Part shown: positions 43,796 to 55,291 of the stretch, one piece after another
Layout of the letters: the number at the start of each line of letters is the position of its first letter
Numbering within the stretch: position 1 is the first letter of the stretch
Origin: Candidatus Kryptoniota bacterium
GTDB taxonomy: Bacteria; Bacteroidota; Ignavibacteria; Kryptoniales; JAKASW01
Reading direction: 5' to 3'
DNA length: 64,000 nt
Assembly: GCA_036567965.1 (NCBI GenBank)
Contig: DATCTN010000017.1
Span: 62,001 to 126,000 of the forward strand
Made by a program: the position numbers and the translations under genes
The notes under the pieces: model-generated
The model's input: only the letters and a program-made list of their open reading frames with translations
Databases searched by the model: none
What the model was told of the DNA's origin: nothing

Positions 43796-44262
43796 GGTTT
43801 CCTGCGGTGGTGATGAAGTTGATCTCAGAATTCGCATCAATTTACAAACAAATCCGGAAATATCTTAAGATCATGGAAATACGCAGCATTCTCCTTCCAG
43901 TGCTATAGGATGCTCGAGCTTCAGTTAAATACACTCCAAGCCGCCTCAAAGAAAAACTCATCCCTCGTCACTCGCTTAACTGGAAGATACGTTTGTCTCT
44001 CTTCACTATCAGAGCGGTTCGAGTTTGCACGGACAAGGGCGTTCGGCCCGCGGTCATGAGTTCGAAAAGTGATTTAGCATGCGGAGGGATGATCTACACT
44101 GAACGTCTCACCCAGCTTCCGGAATCGTCAGTTTGGTTTCTCTCCCTTTACCCATTATAATTTGGCTGCAAGGGCTTTCGTAGAGCCGAAAATATCTCAC
44201 GGCTGCCAATCGCTGTGAATGTCAGGGCAAAACATAGATCTTAAACACTGCGGGGCTTGTTA
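43796..44262. other. Intergenic region between divergent genes
   Basis: About 465 bases upstream of both hisS and the sensor kinase. I see no gene or clear RNA; promoters for both units are expected here. A T-box would not be expected in this group and I see no T-box-like sequence. Confidence 0.4.
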
Positions 44263-46728
44263 ATGAAGCCTCCAAGGAATGCCACTCCGGTTTTCATACT
44301 GGACGGGGTCCTTTACATTTTCTGCCTCCTGGGTATATGGCAGATTGCCGAGAAGACGGCTCTCCCGCTCTCACTTTTCAGGAGTCCGGAGGGGACTTTT
44401 GTCGTCAGCCGTTCGACCAGTAGACTTCCCTCCGGTTTAAGCGTCGGAGACACAGTCTCGTTAGTCGACGGCAAAAAAATTTCAATACCAGAGGACATTG
44501 AGTTCCTGCTCGACGGCATCAGAGTAGGAAATGATATTCCGGTCACGGTGCAGAGTACCGGCGGATCGAGGGAAGTCGTGCTCACTGGAGTACCCGCATA
44601 CAGCAGGATGTATGTTCTGATCGCCTGGTTTGTCGGCACGCTGTTCTTCTTTTCGGGCGTTTTCGTATTCGTCAAGAAAAGAAATGAGATCGCTGCCGAG
44701 GTCTATCACTACGGTGCAGTTGGGGTCGCGTCAATAATTATGATGACGTGGGGCTGCTACACCATCAGTCCCACTGGACTCGGACATGCAATAAGGATCA
44801 TCTTTTCATCTGCATACGCATTCGTGCCCGCTCTTCTCCTGCATCTGAGCCTTGTCTTTCCAACAAAAAAGGAAACCTCCGTCCGCGTCCTGGTAAAGCC
44901 GTTGTATGTGCTAACGTCACTACTATCCATCGGAATGGCTGTCACTTTTCTGAAGGCAACATTCCCGGTGTCCGTCGAAGAGTTTCATACGTTCATGTTT
45001 TTCTTCAACGTGACAAGATGGGTTTACGCCATGAGTGTATTCCTGGCTATCTTTTTCTTCGTGCTTTCGTACCGGTCGGCGCACCAGGAAATGGAGAGGC
45101 GGCAGCTAAGATGGGTGTTTCTCGGATTGATAGTCAGCTCGCTCGGATTCGTCAGCCTGTGGCAGGTGCCTGAACTACTAACTTCCCACGGACTTATAAG
45201 CGAAGAGGTGGTGATACTGATATCTGCCGCCACTCCGGTAGCTTTTGCGGTCGCCATCATCAAGTACCATGTAATGGACATCGATTACTTCGTAAACAGA
45301 AGTTCCGTCTATGTCATCGTTCTCATAATCTTGTTTTCGATCTATGCACTGGTGGTGGGCTCGGTTGCTGCCGTCGTTGCGAGCTTCACTGTCACAAGAT
45401 CGATTCTCGTGTCGGCAGTCGCCGCGGCGATCGTTGCGATCCTCTTTCAACCTGTGCGCGTCAGGGTTCAGAGATTTGTGGACAGGAACTTCTTCCGGGT
45501 CAAATACGACATGAAATTGATTGATAGGAAGTTCGACGACGAGATATGGAAATGCGCGACAGTGGAAGAGATAGGGACTCTCCTGATCAAGAACGTGGTG
45601 GCGGCCATCCCTGTGGAGAGAATTGGATTCTTCGCGATCGATGAACCGGGTTATCTCCTGCGGCCGATTTTTAACGAAGGTCTTGACCCGGAAATATTGA
45701 AGACCTGCGCGGTTGAGTTGCAGGATATCACTTCACGCTTGTCGGTTCCTTTGATTCTGAAACAAGAAGTGGAGCCGGGAGTCCGATACGAAGAAGCCGA
45801 CGAACAGGTGTTCCTGAGACTGAACGCCGCGGCAGTTCTCCCGATGAGATCCGAGAAGGGAGATGTCTCAGGGCTTCTCATACTTGGTCCGAAAAAGTCC
45901 GGTAATCTCTTCAGTATAGAAGACGTCGAACTCCTGACGTCTCTCATGCGCCAATCCGGATTGGCTTACGGCAGGATAGTGATGCGAAACAGGTTGAGGC
46001 GAGAGCAGGAGGAGAGAGAACGGTTGGAAGAACTCAACCGCATGAAAACCTACTTCGTCTCGAGTGTTTCTCACGATCTCAAGACGCCGCTGACGACCAT
46101 AAGAATGTACACGGAGATACTGAAGTCGCGAGGCGGTTCTCACGCTTCAAGAACCGGAAAGTATCTCGATACTATCTGGGGAGAATCTCTTCGGCTGACA
46201 AGATTGATCGATAATGTCCTGGATGTTGCGAAAGCTGAACGCGGAACTGTTTCGTTTGCACTCGGGACTGAAGACCTGAATGAGATCGTCGCGGCAAGCG
46301 TGAAGATGATGGAGTACGAATTGAAAAAGGAAGGCTTCGCATGCAAAGTCAAAATTCGTTCACACCTTCAACCTATCTCAGCCAATAGAGATGCCGTAAT
46401 GGAAGCTCTAGGCAATCTGATTTCCAACGCGATTGAGTATTCGACGAAAAAGAAGATTATCCGGATCGAGACATTCAAGAGAGACGAGTCTGTGTGTGTT
46501 TCAGTCATCGATAGAGGAGTTGGAATTGCGCGAGAGGATCTGCCGCATGTGTTCGACGCCTTTTACAGAGGTGCAGCGACGAAGACACTGCGACCGGGAG
46601 GGACCGGACTGGGACTGGCGGTGGTCAAAAACGTAATGGACGCCCACCATGGCGCGGTAAACATCAATAGCGAGCCAGGATATGGTACGAGGATCACATT
46701 ACTGTTTCCAATTACGGAGCGATCATGA
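44263..46728 (+). CDS. Membrane sensor histidine kinase with multi-TM input and GAF-like domain
   Basis: An 821-residue kinase. A first membrane helix (about 10-30) precedes a periplasmic PDZ-like loop (GLSVGDTVSLVDGKKI, about 60-105), then about seven membrane helices (about 115-400). A GAF-like domain (about 430-585) leads to HisKA with the H-box SSVSHDLKTPLTTIRMYTEI, and HATPase with ALGNLISNAIEYS, DRGVGIA, FDAFYRG and GTGLGLAVVK. The ATG at 44263 is preferred to the TTG two codons earlier. Its stop overlaps the start of the response regulator as ATGA, so the two form a two-component pair. The signal sensed is unknown. Confidence 0.93.
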   Translation: MKPPRNATPVFILDGVLYIFCLLGIWQIAEKTALPLSLFRSPEGTFVVSRSTSRLPSGLSVGDTVSLVDGKKISIPEDIEFLLDGIRVGNDIPVTVQSTGGSREVVLTGVPAYSRMYVLIAWFVGTLFFFSGVFVFVKKRNEIAAEVYHYGAVGVASIIMMTWGCYTISPTGLGHAIRIIFSSAYAFVPALLLHLSLVFPTKKETSVRVLVKPLYVLTSLLSIGMAVTFLKATFPVSVEEFHTFMFFFNVTRWVYAMSVFLAIFFFVLSYRSAHQEMERRQLRWVFLGLIVSSLGFVSLWQVPELLTSHGLISEEVVILISAATPVAFAVAIIKYHVMDIDYFVNRSSVYVIVLIILFSIYALVVGSVAAVVASFTVTRSILVSAVAAAIVAILFQPVRVRVQRFVDRNFFRVKYDMKLIDRKFDDEIWKCATVEEIGTLLIKNVVAAIPVERIGFFAIDEPGYLLRPIFNEGLDPEILKTCAVELQDITSRLSVPLILKQEVEPGVRYEEADEQVFLRLNAAAVLPMRSEKGDVSGLLILGPKKSGNLFSIEDVELLTSLMRQSGLAYGRIVMRNRLRREQEERERLEELNRMKTYFVSSVSHDLKTPLTTIRMYTEILKSRGGSHASRTGKYLDTIWGESLRLTRLIDNVLDVAKAERGTVSFALGTEDLNEIVAASVKMMEYELKKEGFACKVKIRSHLQPISANRDAVMEALGNLISNAIEYSTKKKIIRIETFKRDESVCVSVIDRGVGIAREDLPHVFDAFYRGAATKTLRPGGTGLGLAVVKNVMDAHHGAVNINSEPGYGTRITLLFPITERS

Positions 46729-47405
46729 ACAAAATACTTGTAATCGAAGACGATGCCGCAATAAGGAACGGCCTTGCCGAGACTCTCAAAGGAGAACACT
46801 ATCAGGTGGACACCTCCTCGGATGGGGAAGAAGGATATAAGAAGGCAGTCAAGAAAAGTGTAAACCTGGTAATTCTCGACCTAATGCTTCCATCAATCAA
46901 CGGCGAAGAGATTTGCCGGAGGCTCAGAAGCGAAGGGGTCAACACGCCCATACTTATCCTTACAAGCAAGAAGGAAGAGACGAGCAAAGTTCTCGGACTC
47001 GAATTGGGGGCGGACGATTATGTCACCAAACCATTCAGTATTCCGGAATTGCTCGCGAGAGTAAAAGCGATTCTCAGGAGGCAGGTCAGGAAGGCGGAGA
47101 TCATCGACGAATTCTCGTTCGGAAATGTCAGGATCGAAATGAAGAAACACGAAGCGACTAAGAAAGGGAAATCAATCAAGCTTACAGAGAGGGAATTCCG
47201 GGTGTTGAAATACCTGATCGACCATAAGTGCGAAGTCGTGACACGCGATATGCTTCTCGACGAAGTCTGGGGGTACGAGACTTTCCCGACCACACGTACG
47301 GTCGATAACTACATTCTCTCTATCCGTCATAAGTTGGAGGACAACCCTGCGCGTCCAAGGTACATCCTCACTGTCCATACCTCCGGATACAAGCTTGATG
47401 TTTGA
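46725..47405 (+). CDS. OmpR/PhoB family response regulator
   Basis: A 226-residue transcription factor. The receiver domain (1-120) has the acidic pair EDDAA, the phosphoacceptor in LVILDLMLPSINGEE, T in LILTSKK and K in DYVTKPF. A winged-helix DNA-binding domain follows (KLTEREFRVLKYLIDHKCEV, TVDNYILSIRHKLE). Start overlaps the kinase stop (ATGA). Likely targets include the outer-membrane genes just downstream (inference from order; no repeated binding site recognised). Confidence 0.95.
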   Translation: MNKILVIEDDAAIRNGLAETLKGEHYQVDTSSDGEEGYKKAVKKSVNLVILDLMLPSINGEEICRRLRSEGVNTPILILTSKKEETSKVLGLELGADDYVTKPFSIPELLARVKAILRRQVRKAEIIDEFSFGNVRIEMKKHEATKKGKSIKLTEREFRVLKYLIDHKCEVVTRDMLLDEVWGYETFPTTRTVDNYILSIRHKLEDNPARPRYILTVHTSGYKLDV

Positions 47406-47749: not shown

Positions 47750-48373
47750 ATGAAACGCGTACTCATGCAGCTTGTCATTCTGTTCGTCATAATGATTCCG
47801 GCCGCATTCGCACAGTTGCCGCTGAGCGTCGGAGTACTTGGCGGATTGAACCTGGCAAATGCGACAACTTCGCCGTCATTATCTACTACAACCAGGACCG
47901 GCATGATTGTCGGCGGCTCGATCGAATTCGGGCTTGCCCCAATGTTATCTGTGCAGCCCGAAGTCCTTTACATCCAGAAGGGCGCGAAGTATTCCATGAT
48001 TTTCCTGGGGCAAACAATCGACGCAACATTCAAATTTGATTATGTCGAAGTCCCGATCCTCATCAAGGCTAAACTTCCTGTCGGCCCGCTGAAACCGTAC
48101 GTCTTTGTCGGCCCAAATATCGGCTTTAGTGTGAACGCCCAGGGAGAGGTCACTGCATTCGGTCAAACTCAAACGAGCAAGATAGACTCCACTAAATCGA
48201 CCGACTTCTGTCTCGACATCGGAGCTGGAGTGGAGTACTCATTAATCGCGAATCTGAGTTTGACGGGTGACGTCCGATATTCGTTAGGTCTCACAAATAT
48301 CGGAACCGAATCCGAATCGTGGAAATCAACCGGCGTCCAGATCCTGGTCGGCGTCAAGATTTCACTGATGTAA
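47750..48373 (+). CDS. PorT-like outer-membrane beta-barrel protein
   Basis: A 207-residue exported barrel: signal peptide 1-21 (IMIPAAFAQ), then eight or so amphipathic strands (GVLGGLNLANATT, MLSVQPEVLYIQKGAKYSM, FKFDYVEVPILIKAKLPVG, KPYVFVGPNIGFSV, LDIGAGVEYSLIANLSLTGD). This is the common Bacteroidota porin-family/PorT-like barrel. It is the first of three envelope genes after the two-component pair. Substrate or partner unknown. Confidence 0.85.
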   Translation: MKRVLMQLVILFVIMIPAAFAQLPLSVGVLGGLNLANATTSPSLSTTTRTGMIVGGSIEFGLAPMLSVQPEVLYIQKGAKYSMIFLGQTIDATFKFDYVEVPILIKAKLPVGPLKPYVFVGPNIGFSVNAQGEVTAFGQTQTSKIDSTKSTDFCLDIGAGVEYSLIANLSLTGDVRYSLGLTNIGTESESWKSTGVQILVGVKISLM

Positions 48374-48401: not shown

Positions 48402-50627
48402 ATGAGAATTTCTTTTTCCCGAATTGGGTTTCGAGGTTTTGAAGTAAGGAATCGTTTGGATAGTACACTCGGTATAGTCGTATTTGCGAGTCTCTTACTG
48501 CTCGATGTGTCAGCTCTTTTCGCCTCTTCGGCAAATAATTCTGCCGATACAGCCGGAACACAAAACCTTCTCAAAGTGGTTACAATCAACATCTGGTCCG
48601 GTTTGGATTACACCGGCTTCTTTCGTTTCGGCGAGTATGAGACAGCAAAGAGAAGGGAACTTCGTCTGCAGCTTCTCATCGCGCAGCTGAGGAGACTCGA
48701 CCCGGACGTCATCTGCATTCAGGAGGCGAACCCGGTCAGTGAGTATTCATGCCGGCTTGCAGACTCGCTCGGCTTCGATGAAGTTCACCAGGTATGCAAC
48801 GCGGGAATCAAGTTTGGCGGAGTGGGACTGCCGACGAACTTTGACGAAGGAATCGCAATTCTTGCACGCAGGAACTTGCAGCTGCGCTATCTTCCACCCT
48901 GGAAGTTGTCCGGATCGTTCGGAATTTATGGCGGCGCCATTACCCTGAACTTCGATGAATCCGAGTTTGCCCAGGTCGCCCAGATCACGGTGGGCGGGAA
49001 GGCAATATACCTCGTCAATGTTCACCTGAGTGCCTATCCTCCTGACGATCGAACCATCAAGGAGGAAATCGAAAAGGAGATAATTGAGGGGAGGATCGAC
49101 AGTGCCGAAGCGCAGCAGCTTTCTGAAGATATTTCTGCGGGAGCCGGAAGAAGAGTTGAGGAAGTATCCGAGCTTCTGGACCACCTGGCTGAATTTCCCG
49201 CCGGTATTCCGGTGACCATGGCGGGCGATTTCAATTCGATCCAGGACTCCCGAGAGATGAAATTGATCGGTGGCAGAGGCGAATTTTCCTGTGTGCGTGA
49301 CAGCGCCGCTAATGCTTCCCATCCTACCTGGGATCCGCTTCGGAACCCGAATATAAAGTTCTCCACTGATCTTTCTGCGGAGGGCGTGAATGACTTCAGC
49401 ACTTTCGACAGATTGTCCGCCATGTATGACCGCGTCCCAAGAACAATCGATTACATATTCCTGAACAATCGCTTCACGGAGGGAAGTACAGTGGAGGCGC
49501 ACATTGCGATGGATGAATCTCGTGACAGTGTTTTTGCGTCCGACCATTTCGGTGTTTTTGCGGTCATCGATATGAATAAGATTGCGCGCGATTCTCTATC
49601 GACTGACAATGAAAAGAGCTCTGCGCGGAGTCCGGTTGAACCTCTTCCGATTTTGTCTTACGACACGGACACACATTTTGGATACGGCGCGAAACTTTTT
49701 CTCTTCGATCTGTTCAAGCTGAACGAGTCGTTTGACATCGTGCTTTTTAACAGCACGAAGGGAGAGCAATGGTACCGGTTCGTATTTTCAATTCCTGATT
49801 TCGAATCGAGAGAGGGTACACGGTACCCTGTCGCTCTCGATTTGATTTTCGATTATGACAAATGGCTTCGAAATAACTTCTACGGAATCGGAAATGCCAG
49901 CAGAGTTTCCGAAGGTGAACAATACACCAGGATCCCGATCGATGCGGAAGTGGATATCAGCAGGGGTTTTAGCCCTACTTTCGTAGGTCAGGTGATATTG
50001 AAATACATGTCGGTAAGAAATTATAATTTTGCAGTAGGAAGCAAGCTGGCCACTCTTCCACCCGCGTTGAACTCTGCGACGGTGAAATACAATTCTCTTG
50101 GTTTGACATTGAGATACGACACGAGGAACAGTTTCATTAATGCGTCTAAAGGCGTCGTGCTGCAGGGTGAGACTGAGTATTCACCGCGGTGGAGTCTCGG
50201 AAATACATCGTTCGCCCGTGCGGCAGGATGGATCCAATACTATTCCGTTCTCTTTTACCCTACCACCGTGTTCGCTTTGAGGATCGGAGCCCAGCAGGTA
50301 TTCGGGAGCAACATTCCTGTCCAGGTGATGAGTTCGCTTGGCGGTACGCTGAATCTCCGCGGGTACCCGCAGGACAGATTTCTCGACAAGTCCGACGCTT
50401 TGCTGAATGCAGAGTTGAGATTTCCGATTTTCTGGAGAATCGGCGGCGTAGCGGGAATCGATGCGGGAAAAGTTTGGCCGTCACTGAAAGACATCGACTT
50501 TCGTAACTGGCCTTACAATCCGCTCGCGGGACTGCGTTTGTATATGGACAATTACGTTGTCCGAGTTGACATCGGGTTTGGAAGAGAGGGTACGGGTTTC
50601 TATTTCAATTTCGGTCAGCTGTTCTAA
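48402..50627 (+). CDS. Endonuclease/exonuclease/phosphatase domain fused to an Omp85-type beta-barrel
   Basis: A 741-residue outer-membrane protein with two parts. After a hydrophobic export segment (about 23-43), residues 55-392 form an EEP (DNase I-like) domain with the metal and catalytic set: TINIWSG, E108 in CIQEAN, H208 in VNVHLS, D276/N278 in AGDFNS, D350 in RTIDYIF and D381-H382 in SDHFGVFA. Residues about 410-741 resemble an Omp85/BamA-type barrel (bacterial surface antigen D15), with SLGGTLNLRGYPQDRF and a C-terminal phenylalanine (YFNFGQLF). No POTRA repeats are visible between them. This recalls type Vd patatin transporters such as PlpD, but with a phosphodiesterase/nuclease passenger. 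The enzymatic substrate (DNA, RNA, phospholipid or inositol phosphate) is unknown. Confidence 0.85.
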   Translation: MRISFSRIGFRGFEVRNRLDSTLGIVVFASLLLLDVSALFASSANNSADTAGTQNLLKVVTINIWSGLDYTGFFRFGEYETAKRRELRLQLLIAQLRRLDPDVICIQEANPVSEYSCRLADSLGFDEVHQVCNAGIKFGGVGLPTNFDEGIAILARRNLQLRYLPPWKLSGSFGIYGGAITLNFDESEFAQVAQITVGGKAIYLVNVHLSAYPPDDRTIKEEIEKEIIEGRIDSAEAQQLSEDISAGAGRRVEEVSELLDHLAEFPAGIPVTMAGDFNSIQDSREMKLIGGRGEFSCVRDSAANASHPTWDPLRNPNIKFSTDLSAEGVNDFSTFDRLSAMYDRVPRTIDYIFLNNRFTEGSTVEAHIAMDESRDSVFASDHFGVFAVIDMNKIARDSLSTDNEKSSARSPVEPLPILSYDTDTHFGYGAKLFLFDLFKLNESFDIVLFNSTKGEQWYRFVFSIPDFESREGTRYPVALDLIFDYDKWLRNNFYGIGNASRVSEGEQYTRIPIDAEVDISRGFSPTFVGQVILKYMSVRNYNFAVGSKLATLPPALNSATVKYNSLGLTLRYDTRNSFINASKGVVLQGETEYSPRWSLGNTSFARAAGWIQYYSVLFYPTTVFALRIGAQQVFGSNIPVQVMSSLGGTLNLRGYPQDRFLDKSDALLNAELRFPIFWRIGGVAGIDAGKVWPSLKDIDFRNWPYNPLAGLRLYMDNYVVRVDIGFGREGTGFYFNFGQLF

Positions 50628-50701: not shown

Positions 50702-51781
50702 ATGAAACGAATCGGACTTCTCCTTTTGTTTTTCTCAATCTCATTTCCGGTTAGAGCCCAGGATCTCGGGAAACCGGTTCAACTCAACTCACTCGTGGGA
50801 GACACGCTCTGGCCGATGTTGAGGCAGCATTACGGTCTCCTGTCAAACGTCGATAAGTTCGTGTGCGCAAGATTCTTCGTTTCGAATGATTCGATCGTGA
50901 ACGCATGTGTGAGATACATGGGAAAAGACGGAACGCCGGAAGATACGCTTGTCCAGCAAGTGGGAATCCAACATGTGGTCGTCGCAATGATGAATCGAAA
51001 AGATTCGTTATTGGAATCGACGCAGTTACTTCTCAAGGACGGGCTGATCGTGAGCGGGAAAATTCTTAGGGAGACTACCGATTCGTTAACGTTCGCAGCG
51101 GGGAGTTTGGGAAACGTCGCCATAGCCAAAGCTAATATCGAAAACATAAGCGAGCGGACGCGCGGACCCGCCCGAAAGTATTCGGATCTTGTAAAGGACC
51201 CAGACATGACAAGGGCATACCTCATGCCCACCGCCTCCACGCTTCCTGCCGGCACCGGCTACATCGGAGACTATGAGCTCATCTTCTTTACGGCGGCTTA
51301 TGGCCTGACAGATTGGCTGATGATAAATGGAGGAACCGTGCTGCTCCCGCTTCGCCCTGAGGACATGATTTTCGATTACGGCGCAAAGGTGCGACTACTT
51401 CCGGCCGCCTCCAGGTTGAACTTCTCGCTTGGTGTTCAAATGTTCGGAGGAGGACTAATTGAAAATGTCTCGGGGATCGCGTACGGCGTCGCGAGTGTTG
51501 GAAACCGTGACCGCGCGCTCAACTTTGCTGTCGGCGACGCGTTCTCCGGGAGCGGAAGCCAGATTCTTTTCGGAATAAGCGGCGATGAACGTGTCGGCGA
51601 AAGCATCAAGCTGATGGCCGAGTTCTGGACGATGAAGGATGCCAACTGGTCTCCGTTGGTGATCGGCCTGAGGTTTTTCGGGAGCAAGCTTTCAGGCGAC
51701 ATCGGTCTTCTTTATCCGCTTGGTCAAAGCTGGGACTCACTCATCGGAATTCCGGTTGTAAGTATTACCTATTCGTTCTGA
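50702..51781 (+). CDS. Exported outer-membrane protein of unknown function
   Basis: A 359-residue exported protein with signal peptide 1-19 (FFSISFPVRAQ). The region around 112-150 (LLLKDGLIVSGKILRETTDS, then GNVAIAKANIENI) resembles the short SH3-like motif found in many Bacteroidota envelope proteins. The C-terminal 200 residues look like beta-strands ending in an aromatic residue (VVSITYSF), so a barrel is likely. Good RBS (AGGAGG). About 75 bases after the EEP-Omp85 gene and probably cotranscribed. I cannot name a family. Confidence 0.7.
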   Translation: MKRIGLLLLFFSISFPVRAQDLGKPVQLNSLVGDTLWPMLRQHYGLLSNVDKFVCARFFVSNDSIVNACVRYMGKDGTPEDTLVQQVGIQHVVVAMMNRKDSLLESTQLLLKDGLIVSGKILRETTDSLTFAAGSLGNVAIAKANIENISERTRGPARKYSDLVKDPDMTRAYLMPTASTLPAGTGYIGDYELIFFTAAYGLTDWLMINGGTVLLPLRPEDMIFDYGAKVRLLPAASRLNFSLGVQMFGGGLIENVSGIAYGVASVGNRDRALNFAVGDAFSGSGSQILFGISGDERVGESIKLMAEFWTMKDANWSPLVIGLRFFGSKLSGDIGLLYPLGQSWDSLIGIPVVSITYSF

Positions 51782-53830: not shown

Positions 53831-55291
53831 ATGAAGTCGTGCGTAAAAAGAAGCCTCATTCCAATTTTGATTCTCCTCTTCTCATTTCCTGTGATGTCGT
53901 TCGGCCAGGACTTTCAACACTTTTTGGATCGAGTCAATTCTTTACCCGATTCTCTCCGGCAAACGGTCACTGACAGTCTAATGAACGCGGTGACGACAGT
54001 TCCGCTCATCGAGCAGGACACCGTCGTGCACTTTGTCTACCGCGGGTCGGCGAGCACGTTAACACTCGCCGGAGACGTAAATAATTGGTCGGTGACCGCG
54101 TTAAGCATGATACACGTAGGCGGCACAAATTTCTGGCACGTCGACCAGGTATATCCCACGGACGCACGGCTCGAGTATAAATACGTGATCAACGGCTCGA
54201 ATTGGATTTTAGATCCGCGAAATCCCAACCAGGTCATGGAAGGTTTTGGGCCCAACTCTGAACTGAGAATGCCGGCATATGTTTCGCCGCCTGAAATAAC
54301 ATACTACCCCGATATTCCGCACGGTACTTCAGTCGACACGACGTGGTACAGCACAAATCTTTCCAACTCAAGGAAGATTGAGATCTATCTCCCGGCCGGT
54401 TACAGCACTTCGTCCGACAGTTTCCCCGTGATATATTTTCAGGATGGATCCGAAGCTGTCTCTCTTGAAAATGGCGAGAATGTGATCGACTATCTTACCG
54501 CTCATAAGATGATTCGACCGATCATCGCGGTGTTCGTGTCTTATGTCAACAGGACACCGGAATATGCCGGCAACCAGGTTACTTCATATATGAATTTTTT
54601 CGTTAACGAGCTCGTTCCATTTGTGGATTCGAGATTCCGCACACTCAAGAGTTCGCACGACAGGGGTGTAATCGGAGCTTCGTATGGCGGCAACATTTCG
54701 CTTTGGCTCGGCATGACTTATCCGAGTGTATTTGGAAACATCGGCGCGCAATCGAGTTATGTGGATCCGACCATCTCGTCGACATTTCAGAGCGGAAGCA
54801 AGCTCGATTTGAAATTGTACATGGACCTCGGCACATATGATATCACGAGTCTCATACCGATGGTGCACAGTTTCCTCCAGATTGTAAAAGACAAGGGATA
54901 TGAATACGAATATCACGAGTACAATGAAGGTCACAGCTGGGCGAACTGGCGCGCGCATATAAAAAACGCTCTCGAGTTATTTTATCCGCCGTTGCCGGCA
55001 GGTGTGAAGAAAACATCGCCGAAGTCGACGGGATATTATTTGAACCAGAATTTTCCGAACCCATTTAATCCGAGTACGGTGATCAGCTATCAGCTGTCAG
55101 CTAACAGCTACGTCAGCTTGCGAGTCTACGACATACTTGGAAGGGAAGTTGAGACAATCGTCGAGGCGCGTCAGCCGGCGGGGAGCCATATGGTCAGATT
55201 CGACGGGACGAGTCTGGCGGGCGGGGTTTACATTTGTTGCCTGACTGCAGATGGCCGATCCGATATAACAAAGATGATAATGTTAAAGTGA
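53831..55291 (+). CDS. T9SS-exported esterase (enterochelin esterase-like) with CBM48/E-set domain
   Basis: A 486-residue secreted protein. Signal peptide 1-25 (FPVMSFGQ). Residues 65-150 form an early-set/CBM48-like domain (TLAGDVNNWS, LEYKYVINGSNWILDP). The esterase D/Fes-type alpha/beta-hydrolase domain (about 175-395) has the nucleophile elbow GASYGG and a catalytic-type histidine in NEGHSWANW. The last 80 residues are a T9SS sorting domain (NFPNPFNPSTVISYQL, GVYICCLTADGRS). It probably cleaves feruloyl, acetyl or siderophore esters outside the cell; xylan esterases often have this E-set plus esterase layout. Confidence 0.9.
   Translation: MKSCVKRSLIPILILLFSFPVMSFGQDFQHFLDRVNSLPDSLRQTVTDSLMNAVTTVPLIEQDTVVHFVYRGSASTLTLAGDVNNWSVTALSMIHVGGTNFWHVDQVYPTDARLEYKYVINGSNWILDPRNPNQVMEGFGPNSELRMPAYVSPPEITYYPDIPHGTSVDTTWYSTNLSNSRKIEIYLPAGYSTSSDSFPVIYFQDGSEAVSLENGENVIDYLTAHKMIRPIIAVFVSYVNRTPEYAGNQVTSYMNFFVNELVPFVDSRFRTLKSSHDRGVIGASYGGNISLWLGMTYPSVFGNIGAQSSYVDPTISSTFQSGSKLDLKLYMDLGTYDITSLIPMVHSFLQIVKDKGYEYEYHEYNEGHSWANWRAHIKNALELFYPPLPAGVKKTSPKSTGYYLNQNFPNPFNPSTVISYQLSANSYVSLRVYDILGREVETIVEARQPAGSHMVRFDGTSLAGGVYICCLTADGRSDITKMIMLK

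What the first reader, a model, noticed from the sequence alone, without database searches (positions are those of the whole stretch)
48402..50627. EEP nuclease/phosphodiesterase fused to an Omp85-type barrel
All EEP catalytic motifs are intact and followed directly by a barrel with the LRGYP motif and C-terminal phenylalanine, without POTRA domains. This is a type-Vd-like design known mainly for patatin passengers (PlpD). A surface or periplasmic EEP enzyme built on an Omp85 barrel would be a new class.
Basis: partly seen in the sequence, partly recalled or inferred. Interest (0 to 1): 0.72.

Follow-up and report, generated by a model that had tools for sequence, protein, structure and literature searches.

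The report
Phosphoesterase anchored on outer-membrane barrel
This gene really encodes an exported phosphate-ester-cutting enzyme built directly onto an outer-membrane barrel of the BamA type, a combination conserved in several little-known bacterial phyla and apparently not described before, and most likely an enzyme held on the inner face of the outer membrane to process phosphate-containing molecules.

Summary
One intact ORF (48402-50627, 741 aa) consists of a signal peptide, an EEP domain (Pfam PF03372) and, after an 11-21 residue linker and no POTRA, a 16-stranded Omp85 barrel (PF01103). A 54-sequence AlphaFold2 model (pLDDT 88.8) matches TDP2-like EEP enzymes and BamA/TamA barrels. It is not an assembly fusion: about 30 other loci carry the same one-ORF architecture, in Kryptoniota/Ignavibacteria, Aminicenantes, Latescibacterota and a Cloacimonadota bin. 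All EEP catalytic residues are invariant in 45 sequences. Neomarinimicrobiota encode the two parts as adjacent genes. Fusions and standalone sister barrels often follow one histidine kinase-response regulator pair. Nine loci have a UshA-like 5'-nucleotidase with a type IX secretion tail nearby. The 'surface passenger, type Vd' reading is not supported: the RGYP motif lies in predicted loop L6, which puts the N-terminus in the periplasm; the linker is short; and PlpD's own passenger was shown in 2024 to be periplasmic. Best explanation: an outer-membrane-tethered periplasmic phosphoesterase in a regulated phosphate/nucleotide (or lipid) processing module. It is a new variant of the enzyme-Omp85 kind (precedents PlpD and the POTRA-less 'Metallo' Omp85). 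Substrate and membrane side are untested.

The parts
48402..50627 (+). EEP-Omp85 fusion gene, 741 aa
   Evidence: architecture conserved in ~30 loci
48402..48536 (+). N-terminal leader, residues 1-45, Sec-type signal peptide (inferred from the hydrophobic core ending ALFASS; no lipobox)
   Evidence: sequence; helix 17-43 in the model; comparable leaders in complete homologues
48564..49586 (+). EEP (endonuclease/exonuclease/phosphatase) domain, residues 55-395, catalytic residues N63 E108 H208 D276 N278 D350 D381 H382
   Evidence: Pfam PF03372, invariance, Foldseek to TDP2
49572..49634 (+). short linker, residues 391-411, no POTRA
   Evidence: 11-21 residues between the two domain profiles in the homologues
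49635..50624 (+). Omp85 barrel, residues 412-741, 16 predicted strands, RGYP in the loop between strands 11 and 12, C-terminal F
   Evidence: Pfam PF01103, model, Foldseek to BamA/TamA, PDB profile match 9ccg E 1.9e-21
44257..46728 (+). membrane sensor histidine kinase (GAF, HisKA, HATPase), 823 aa; upstream of the fusion in 14 of 24 loci with at least 3 kb of upstream sequence
46725..47405 (+). OmpR/PhoB-type response regulator, overlaps the kinase gene by 4 bp
47750..48373 (+). small outer-membrane beta-barrel protein (OMP_b-brl_2), ends 28 bp before the fusion gene
50702..51781 (+). 359-aa exported protein of unknown family (c6), 74 bp downstream, recurrent at related loci

Best explanation
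An outer-membrane-tethered periplasmic phosphoesterase. Shown by sequence or prediction: a leader, a complete and conserved metal-dependent EEP catalytic domain, and a POTRA-less 16-strand Omp85 barrel in one chain, encoded in its own genus and in many Bacteroidota relatives behind a histidine kinase-response regulator pair. Inferred: after Sec export and BAM-dependent insertion, the barrel anchors the EEP domain at the periplasmic face of the outer membrane. There it hydrolyses a phosphodiester or phosphomonoester substrate under control of the two-component system. The recurrent neighbouring UshA-like 5'-nucleotidase makes nucleotides, oligonucleotides or other phosphorylated nutrients (phosphate/nucleoside scavenging) the likeliest substrates. 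Outer-membrane lipids are second.
For: Domains and invariant catalytic residues. Model and Foldseek: TDP2-like EEP plus 16-strand barrel with RGYP in loop L6 between strands 11 and 12, which implies a periplasmic N-terminus. Linker 11-21 residues with no POTRA in any homologue. EEP and barrel are adjacent genes in Neomarinimicrobiota (gaps of 4 and 14 by the script). Fused EEP domains form one clade, 24 fused plus one standalone row, 99% SH-aLRT. HK within 5 kb upstream, same strand, in 14 of 24 loci with 3 kb or more upstream. UshA-like 5'-nucleotidase with T9SS tail nearby in 4 fusion loci (L054, L058, L059, L065) and 5 standalone-barrel loci (L041, L042, L043, L083, L085), with gaps of only 2 and 7 in L041 and L042; the genomes of L041-L043 hold only 2-4 such genes, so immediate adjacency by chance is ~0.1-0.2% per locus. 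EEP-only relatives mostly carry export leaders, several lipobox-like, consistent with an envelope-anchored enzyme. PlpD precedent for a periplasmic enzyme domain on an Omp85 barrel (PMC11116518).
Against: Periplasmic location rests on predicted topology and analogy; no experiment. The window's own locus has no 5'-nucleotidase next to it; its only copy is on another contig. Aminicenantes fusions lack both the HK-RR pair of this type and the nucleotidase. The nucleotidase bears a T9SS tail, so it may act outside the cell, which fits less neatly with a periplasmic EEP as its direct partner. Fold and sequence cannot separate nuclease, nucleotide phosphatase and sphingomyelinase-like activity.
Confidence: 0.5

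Rival explanations
1. Autotransporter (type Vd in the original sense): the barrel translocates the EEP domain to the cell surface, where it acts as an ecto-nuclease/phosphatase together with the T9SS-exported 5'-nucleotidase.
For: Co-occurring 5'-nucleotidase has a T9SS sorting tail and so is probably exported to the surface; the passenger lies N-terminal to the barrel as in classical autotransporters.
Against: RGYP falls in predicted loop L6, so the chain enters strand 1 from the periplasm; linker only 11-21 residues; no POTRA; the type Vd prototype PlpD was shown to keep its enzyme in the periplasm.
Confidence: 0.2
2. Outer-membrane lipid enzyme: the EEP domain is a phospholipase C/sphingomyelinase-like enzyme working on lipid head groups of the inner leaflet, as PlpD works on phospholipids.
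For: The EEP profile also matches solved sphingomyelinases, weakly; PlpD deletion alters membrane lipids; the barrel anchor puts the enzyme at the membrane.
Against: Best profile and fold matches are an EEP protein of unknown role, TDP2 and nocturnin, of which the latter two act on DNA or nucleotides, not lipids; linkage to 5'-nucleotidase points to nucleotides.
Confidence: 0.2
3. Outer-membrane protein assembly factor: a POTRA-less BamA-like insertase in which the EEP domain only replaces POTRA as a docking module.
For: Barrel is a true Omp85 barrel and Omp85 proteins usually assemble membrane proteins (PMC4104836).
Against: All catalytic residues are invariant across phyla, unexpected for a pure docking domain; own genome has another Omp85 protein, a 586-aa relative of this barrel; patchy distribution, and the EEP domain absent from several related barrels.
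Confidence: 0.07
4. Assembly or annotation artefact joining two genes.
For: None beyond the unusual architecture.
Against: Same single-ORF fusion in ~30 assemblies from several phyla.
Confidence: 0.01

Closest known systems
'Metallo' subfamily of the Omp85/TpsB superfamily (PF00149 + Omp85, PMC4104836)
   Same: POTRA-less Omp85 barrel with an N-terminal phosphoesterase-type metalloenzyme domain; role unknown
   Different: Enzyme is calcineurin-like (PF00149), an unrelated fold; here it is EEP (PF03372)
PlpD / patatin-like Omp85 (type Vd)
   Same: Hydrolase domain N-terminal to a 16-strand Omp85 barrel; enzyme domain periplasmic in PlpD
   Different: PlpD has a patatin lipase and one POTRA; here an EEP domain and no POTRA
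'noNterm' Omp85 proteins (PMC4104836)
   Same: Barrel-only sister proteins occur in related genomes
   Different: The protein here carries an enzyme domain
ExeM of Shewanella (membrane-associated nuclease with EEP domain, PMC6085458)
   Same: Exported, membrane-associated EEP enzyme; linked there to phosphate limitation
   Different: ExeM is found with the inner membrane, has a predicted C-terminal anchor and carries LTD and YhcR-like domains; no barrel
TDP2 / nocturnin / neutral sphingomyelinase EEP enzymes
   Same: EEP fold and catalytic residues
   Different: None is attached to an outer-membrane barrel in the matches seen

Membership tests
EEP superfamily (PF03372) | Pfam match over the curated cut-off | tested here: met
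   54.7 bits against 24.5
EEP superfamily (PF03372) | Catalytic N, E, H, DxN, D, SDH set | tested here: met
   Invariant in 45 sequences
EEP superfamily (PF03372) | Metal-dependent phosphoesterase activity | not testable with these tools
   Needs purified protein
Omp85 superfamily (PF01103) | C-terminal 16-strand barrel | tested here: met
   55.2 bits against 24; 16 strands in the model; Foldseek BamA/TamA
Omp85 superfamily (PF01103) | RG(F/Y) motif in loop L6 | tested here: met
   R653-G654-Y655 between predicted strands 11 and 12
Omp85 superfamily (PF01103) | At least one POTRA (most members) | tested here: not met
   No POTRA match, linker 11-21 residues; POTRA-less subfamilies are known
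Type Vd / PlpD | Patatin domain | tested here: not met
   No patatin match
Type Vd / PlpD | Single POTRA before the barrel | tested here: not met
Type Vd / PlpD | Passenger at the surface or secreted | not testable with these tools
   Predicted topology says periplasmic; contested for PlpD itself
Metallo-Omp85 | PF00149 domain fused to the barrel | tested here: not met
   Only PF03372 and PF01103; PF00149 occurs in separate neighbouring genes at related loci
Metallo-Omp85 | Absence of POTRA | tested here: met

The most novel reading that the evidence does not exclude
A widespread, previously undescribed class of outer-membrane phosphoesterases in which an EEP enzyme works together with the Omp85 pore, for example by processing nucleic acid or nucleotide substrates as they pass the barrel, under a dedicated two-component system and partnered with an exported 5'-nucleotidase.
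Probability: 0.25. Interest if true: 0.75.

Novelty: new variant of a known kind. Interest (0 to 1): 0.52.

Why it matters
Omp85 proteins are known chiefly as membrane-protein insertases and translocases. This family adds a second, unrelated phosphoesterase fold to the short list of enzymes mounted on such barrels. Together with PlpD it suggests that the Omp85 barrel has repeatedly been used as a plain anchor or pore for periplasmic hydrolases. It also gives a testable candidate for envelope phosphate or nucleotide metabolism in several largely uncultured phyla.

Tried and rejected
Assembly chimera: rejected by ~30 independent loci. Hidden POTRA: rejected, no Pfam match and no room. First genome-contig scan with the single protein found nothing; the profile-based scan worked. 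First structure model from 8 sequences was poor (pLDDT 65.7) and was replaced by the 54-sequence model. The ~740-aa gene after EEP in Spirochaetes looked like a possible barrel, but by eye its translation resembles a membrane phosphatase/TPR-type regulator and it does not match the barrel profile. ~900-aa Omp85 proteins in related genomes were checked as possible Metallo-type comparators, but their N-termini match no Pfam family. Many short hits of the 5'-nucleotidase profile were only the T9SS tail and were discarded with a trimmed profile. The L045 neighbour taken for a nucleotidase is a glucose/sorbosone dehydrogenase. A paper claims sphingomyelinase activity for a chlamydial Omp85 homologue (PMC3976853), but that rests on a weak alignment and is not a domain fusion; not used.

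Full report
Observation. The ORF at 48402-50627 (+) is intact and codes for 741 aa. Pfam finds two families in it, both far above their cut-offs: Exo_endo_phos PF03372 at 60-382 and Omp85 PF01103 at 439-694; nothing POTRA-like is found. NCBIfam gives only sub-threshold Omp85-family matches. The first 45 residues look like a Sec leader without lipobox, and complete homologues start the same way.

Not an artefact. The window lies in a 4.1-Mb genome with one copy of the gene. Among 100 relatives, same-genus genomes G001, G008, G010 and G012 and more distant genomes G026, G057 and G068 carry the whole fusion, G003 has it split over contig ends and G009 has it broken by a frameshift. A profile scan of one-genome-per-species contigs found 30 ORFs matching both domain profiles, from Kryptoniota/Ignavibacteria and other Bacteroidota MAGs, Aminicenantes, Latescibacterota and a bin labelled Cloacimonadota. 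Some of these are the same loci as. An even draw of 296 genomes of the phylum shows that it is patchy: ten had any strong match, most of them to the barrel alone.

Domains. In 45 aligned EEP domains N63, E108, H208, D276, N278, W310, N315, D350, S380, D381 and H382 never vary. The EEP profile matches solved EEP proteins (3teb), TDP2, nocturnin and, more weakly, sphingomyelinases. The barrel profile matches F. nucleatum BamA (9ccg, E 1.9e-21) and TamA (9ccg is named as BamA). The AlphaFold2 model from 54 sequences has pLDDT 88.8 and pTM 0.82, and Foldseek finds TDP2 (TM ~0.80 by target length), BamA and TamA. From residue 412 the model shows 16 strands: 412-421, 425-435, 443-451, 456-464, 478-493, 506-522, 527-541, 560-573, 584-594, 604-619, 622-634, 664-677, 680-692, 705-714, 719-727 and 730-740 (the last interrupted). 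The longest loop (635-663), between strands 11 and 12, holds RGYP (653-656), the place of the L6 motif in Omp85 proteins (established knowledge of the family). With 16 strands and that register, both ends of the barrel lie on the periplasmic side, and the EEP domain is joined to strand 1 by a linker of 11-21 residues in the homologues.

Neighbourhood. In the window the order is histidine kinase (44257-46728), response regulator (46725-47405), small outer-membrane barrel (47750-48373), EEP-Omp85, and a 359-aa exported protein (50702-51781), all on the + strand. A kinase of the same family lies within 5 kb upstream on the same strand in 14 of 24 distinct fusion loci that have at least 3 kb of upstream sequence. 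It also lies upstream of several related barrels that have no EEP domain, for example L042, L082 and L086. Aminicenantes fusions lack it.

Recurrent partner. Next to standalone barrels that are 50-55% identical to this one lies a UshA-like 5'-nucleotidase (Metallophos + 5_nucleotid_C) with a type IX secretion tail: L041, L042 and L043, and also L083 and L085. In L041 and L042 the gaps are 2 and 7. The same gene follows the fusion in L054, L058 and L065 and lies 2.3 kb upstream in L059. The genomes of L041-L043 have only 2-4 genes with that domain, so chance adjacency is about 0.1-0.2% per locus, although related loci are not independent. The window's genome has one such gene, elsewhere.

Evolution. 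In the EEP tree 24 fused domains and one standalone protein form one group with 99% SH-aLRT, apart from exported, unfused relatives in Spirochaetes, Neomarinimicrobiota, Desulfobacterales and others. Several of those have lipobox-like leaders, so lipid and barrel may be alternative anchors (inference). In Neomarinimicrobiota L094 and L097 the EEP gene is followed directly (gaps of 4 and 14) by a separate barrel gene, and L098 has the same arrangement with part of the barrel masked. In the barrel tree, fused and unfused barrels intermix and need 8 changes of state. A single fusion with repeated loss of the EEP domain would explain both trees, but counts of changes cannot tell gain from loss.

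Mechanism. Best supported: an outer-membrane-anchored, periplasmic, metal-dependent phosphoesterase switched on by a two-component system. The linkage to 5'-nucleotidase favours nucleotide or nucleic-acid phosphate as substrate; this step is inferred. A T9SS tail on the nucleotidase keeps the surface model alive at lower probability.

Comparison. The 2014 survey of Omp85 proteins lists ten architectures, among them POTRA-less 'Metallo' proteins with PF00149 and barrel-only 'noNterm' proteins, and its text has no endonuclease or EEP type. The survey calls PF00149 a metalloprotease domain; the Pfam copy here names PF00149 calcineurin-like phosphoesterase. Searches of 5.4 million open papers for EEP together with Omp85 gave nothing, with the limit that subscription papers and InterPro were not searched. 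So this is a new variant of a known kind: a second, unrelated phosphoesterase fold on a POTRA-less Omp85 barrel.

Noticed in passing
L038:8765-8777 (G009, same genus; = L073): The fusion gene is broken by a frameshift between the EEP and barrel parts in this genome.
   Followed up: partly
L046:6253-7681 (G029): Remnants of the locus: truncated histidine kinase, c6-like protein and an EEP piece containing stop codons; a decaying copy.
   Followed up: partly
window 50702-51781; L044:1588-3288; L041:11007-11600: A family of exported proteins without Pfam match, apparently with a small SH3/LSm-like segment (by eye), recurs beside EEP-Omp85 and beside standalone barrels.
   Followed up: partly
L091:1109-4114 (Aminicenantes): A related barrel carries a ~660-residue N-terminal region without any Pfam match.
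   Followed up: partly
L094:4567-8358, L097:4490-8311, L098:4583-7902: The split EEP and barrel genes of Neomarinimicrobiota follow a conserved ~435-aa gene that by eye resembles the DUF1343 (exo-N-acetylmuramidase-like) family, an unexplored possible link to cell-wall turnover.
   Followed up: no
L099, L100, L102, L104, L110 (EEP-only relatives): Several unfused EEP relatives have lipoprotein-like leaders, so the same enzyme may be lipid-anchored in other phyla.
   Followed up: partly
window 53831-55291: Esterase with a type IX secretion tail; homologues lie near the fusion in other members of the genus.
   Followed up: no
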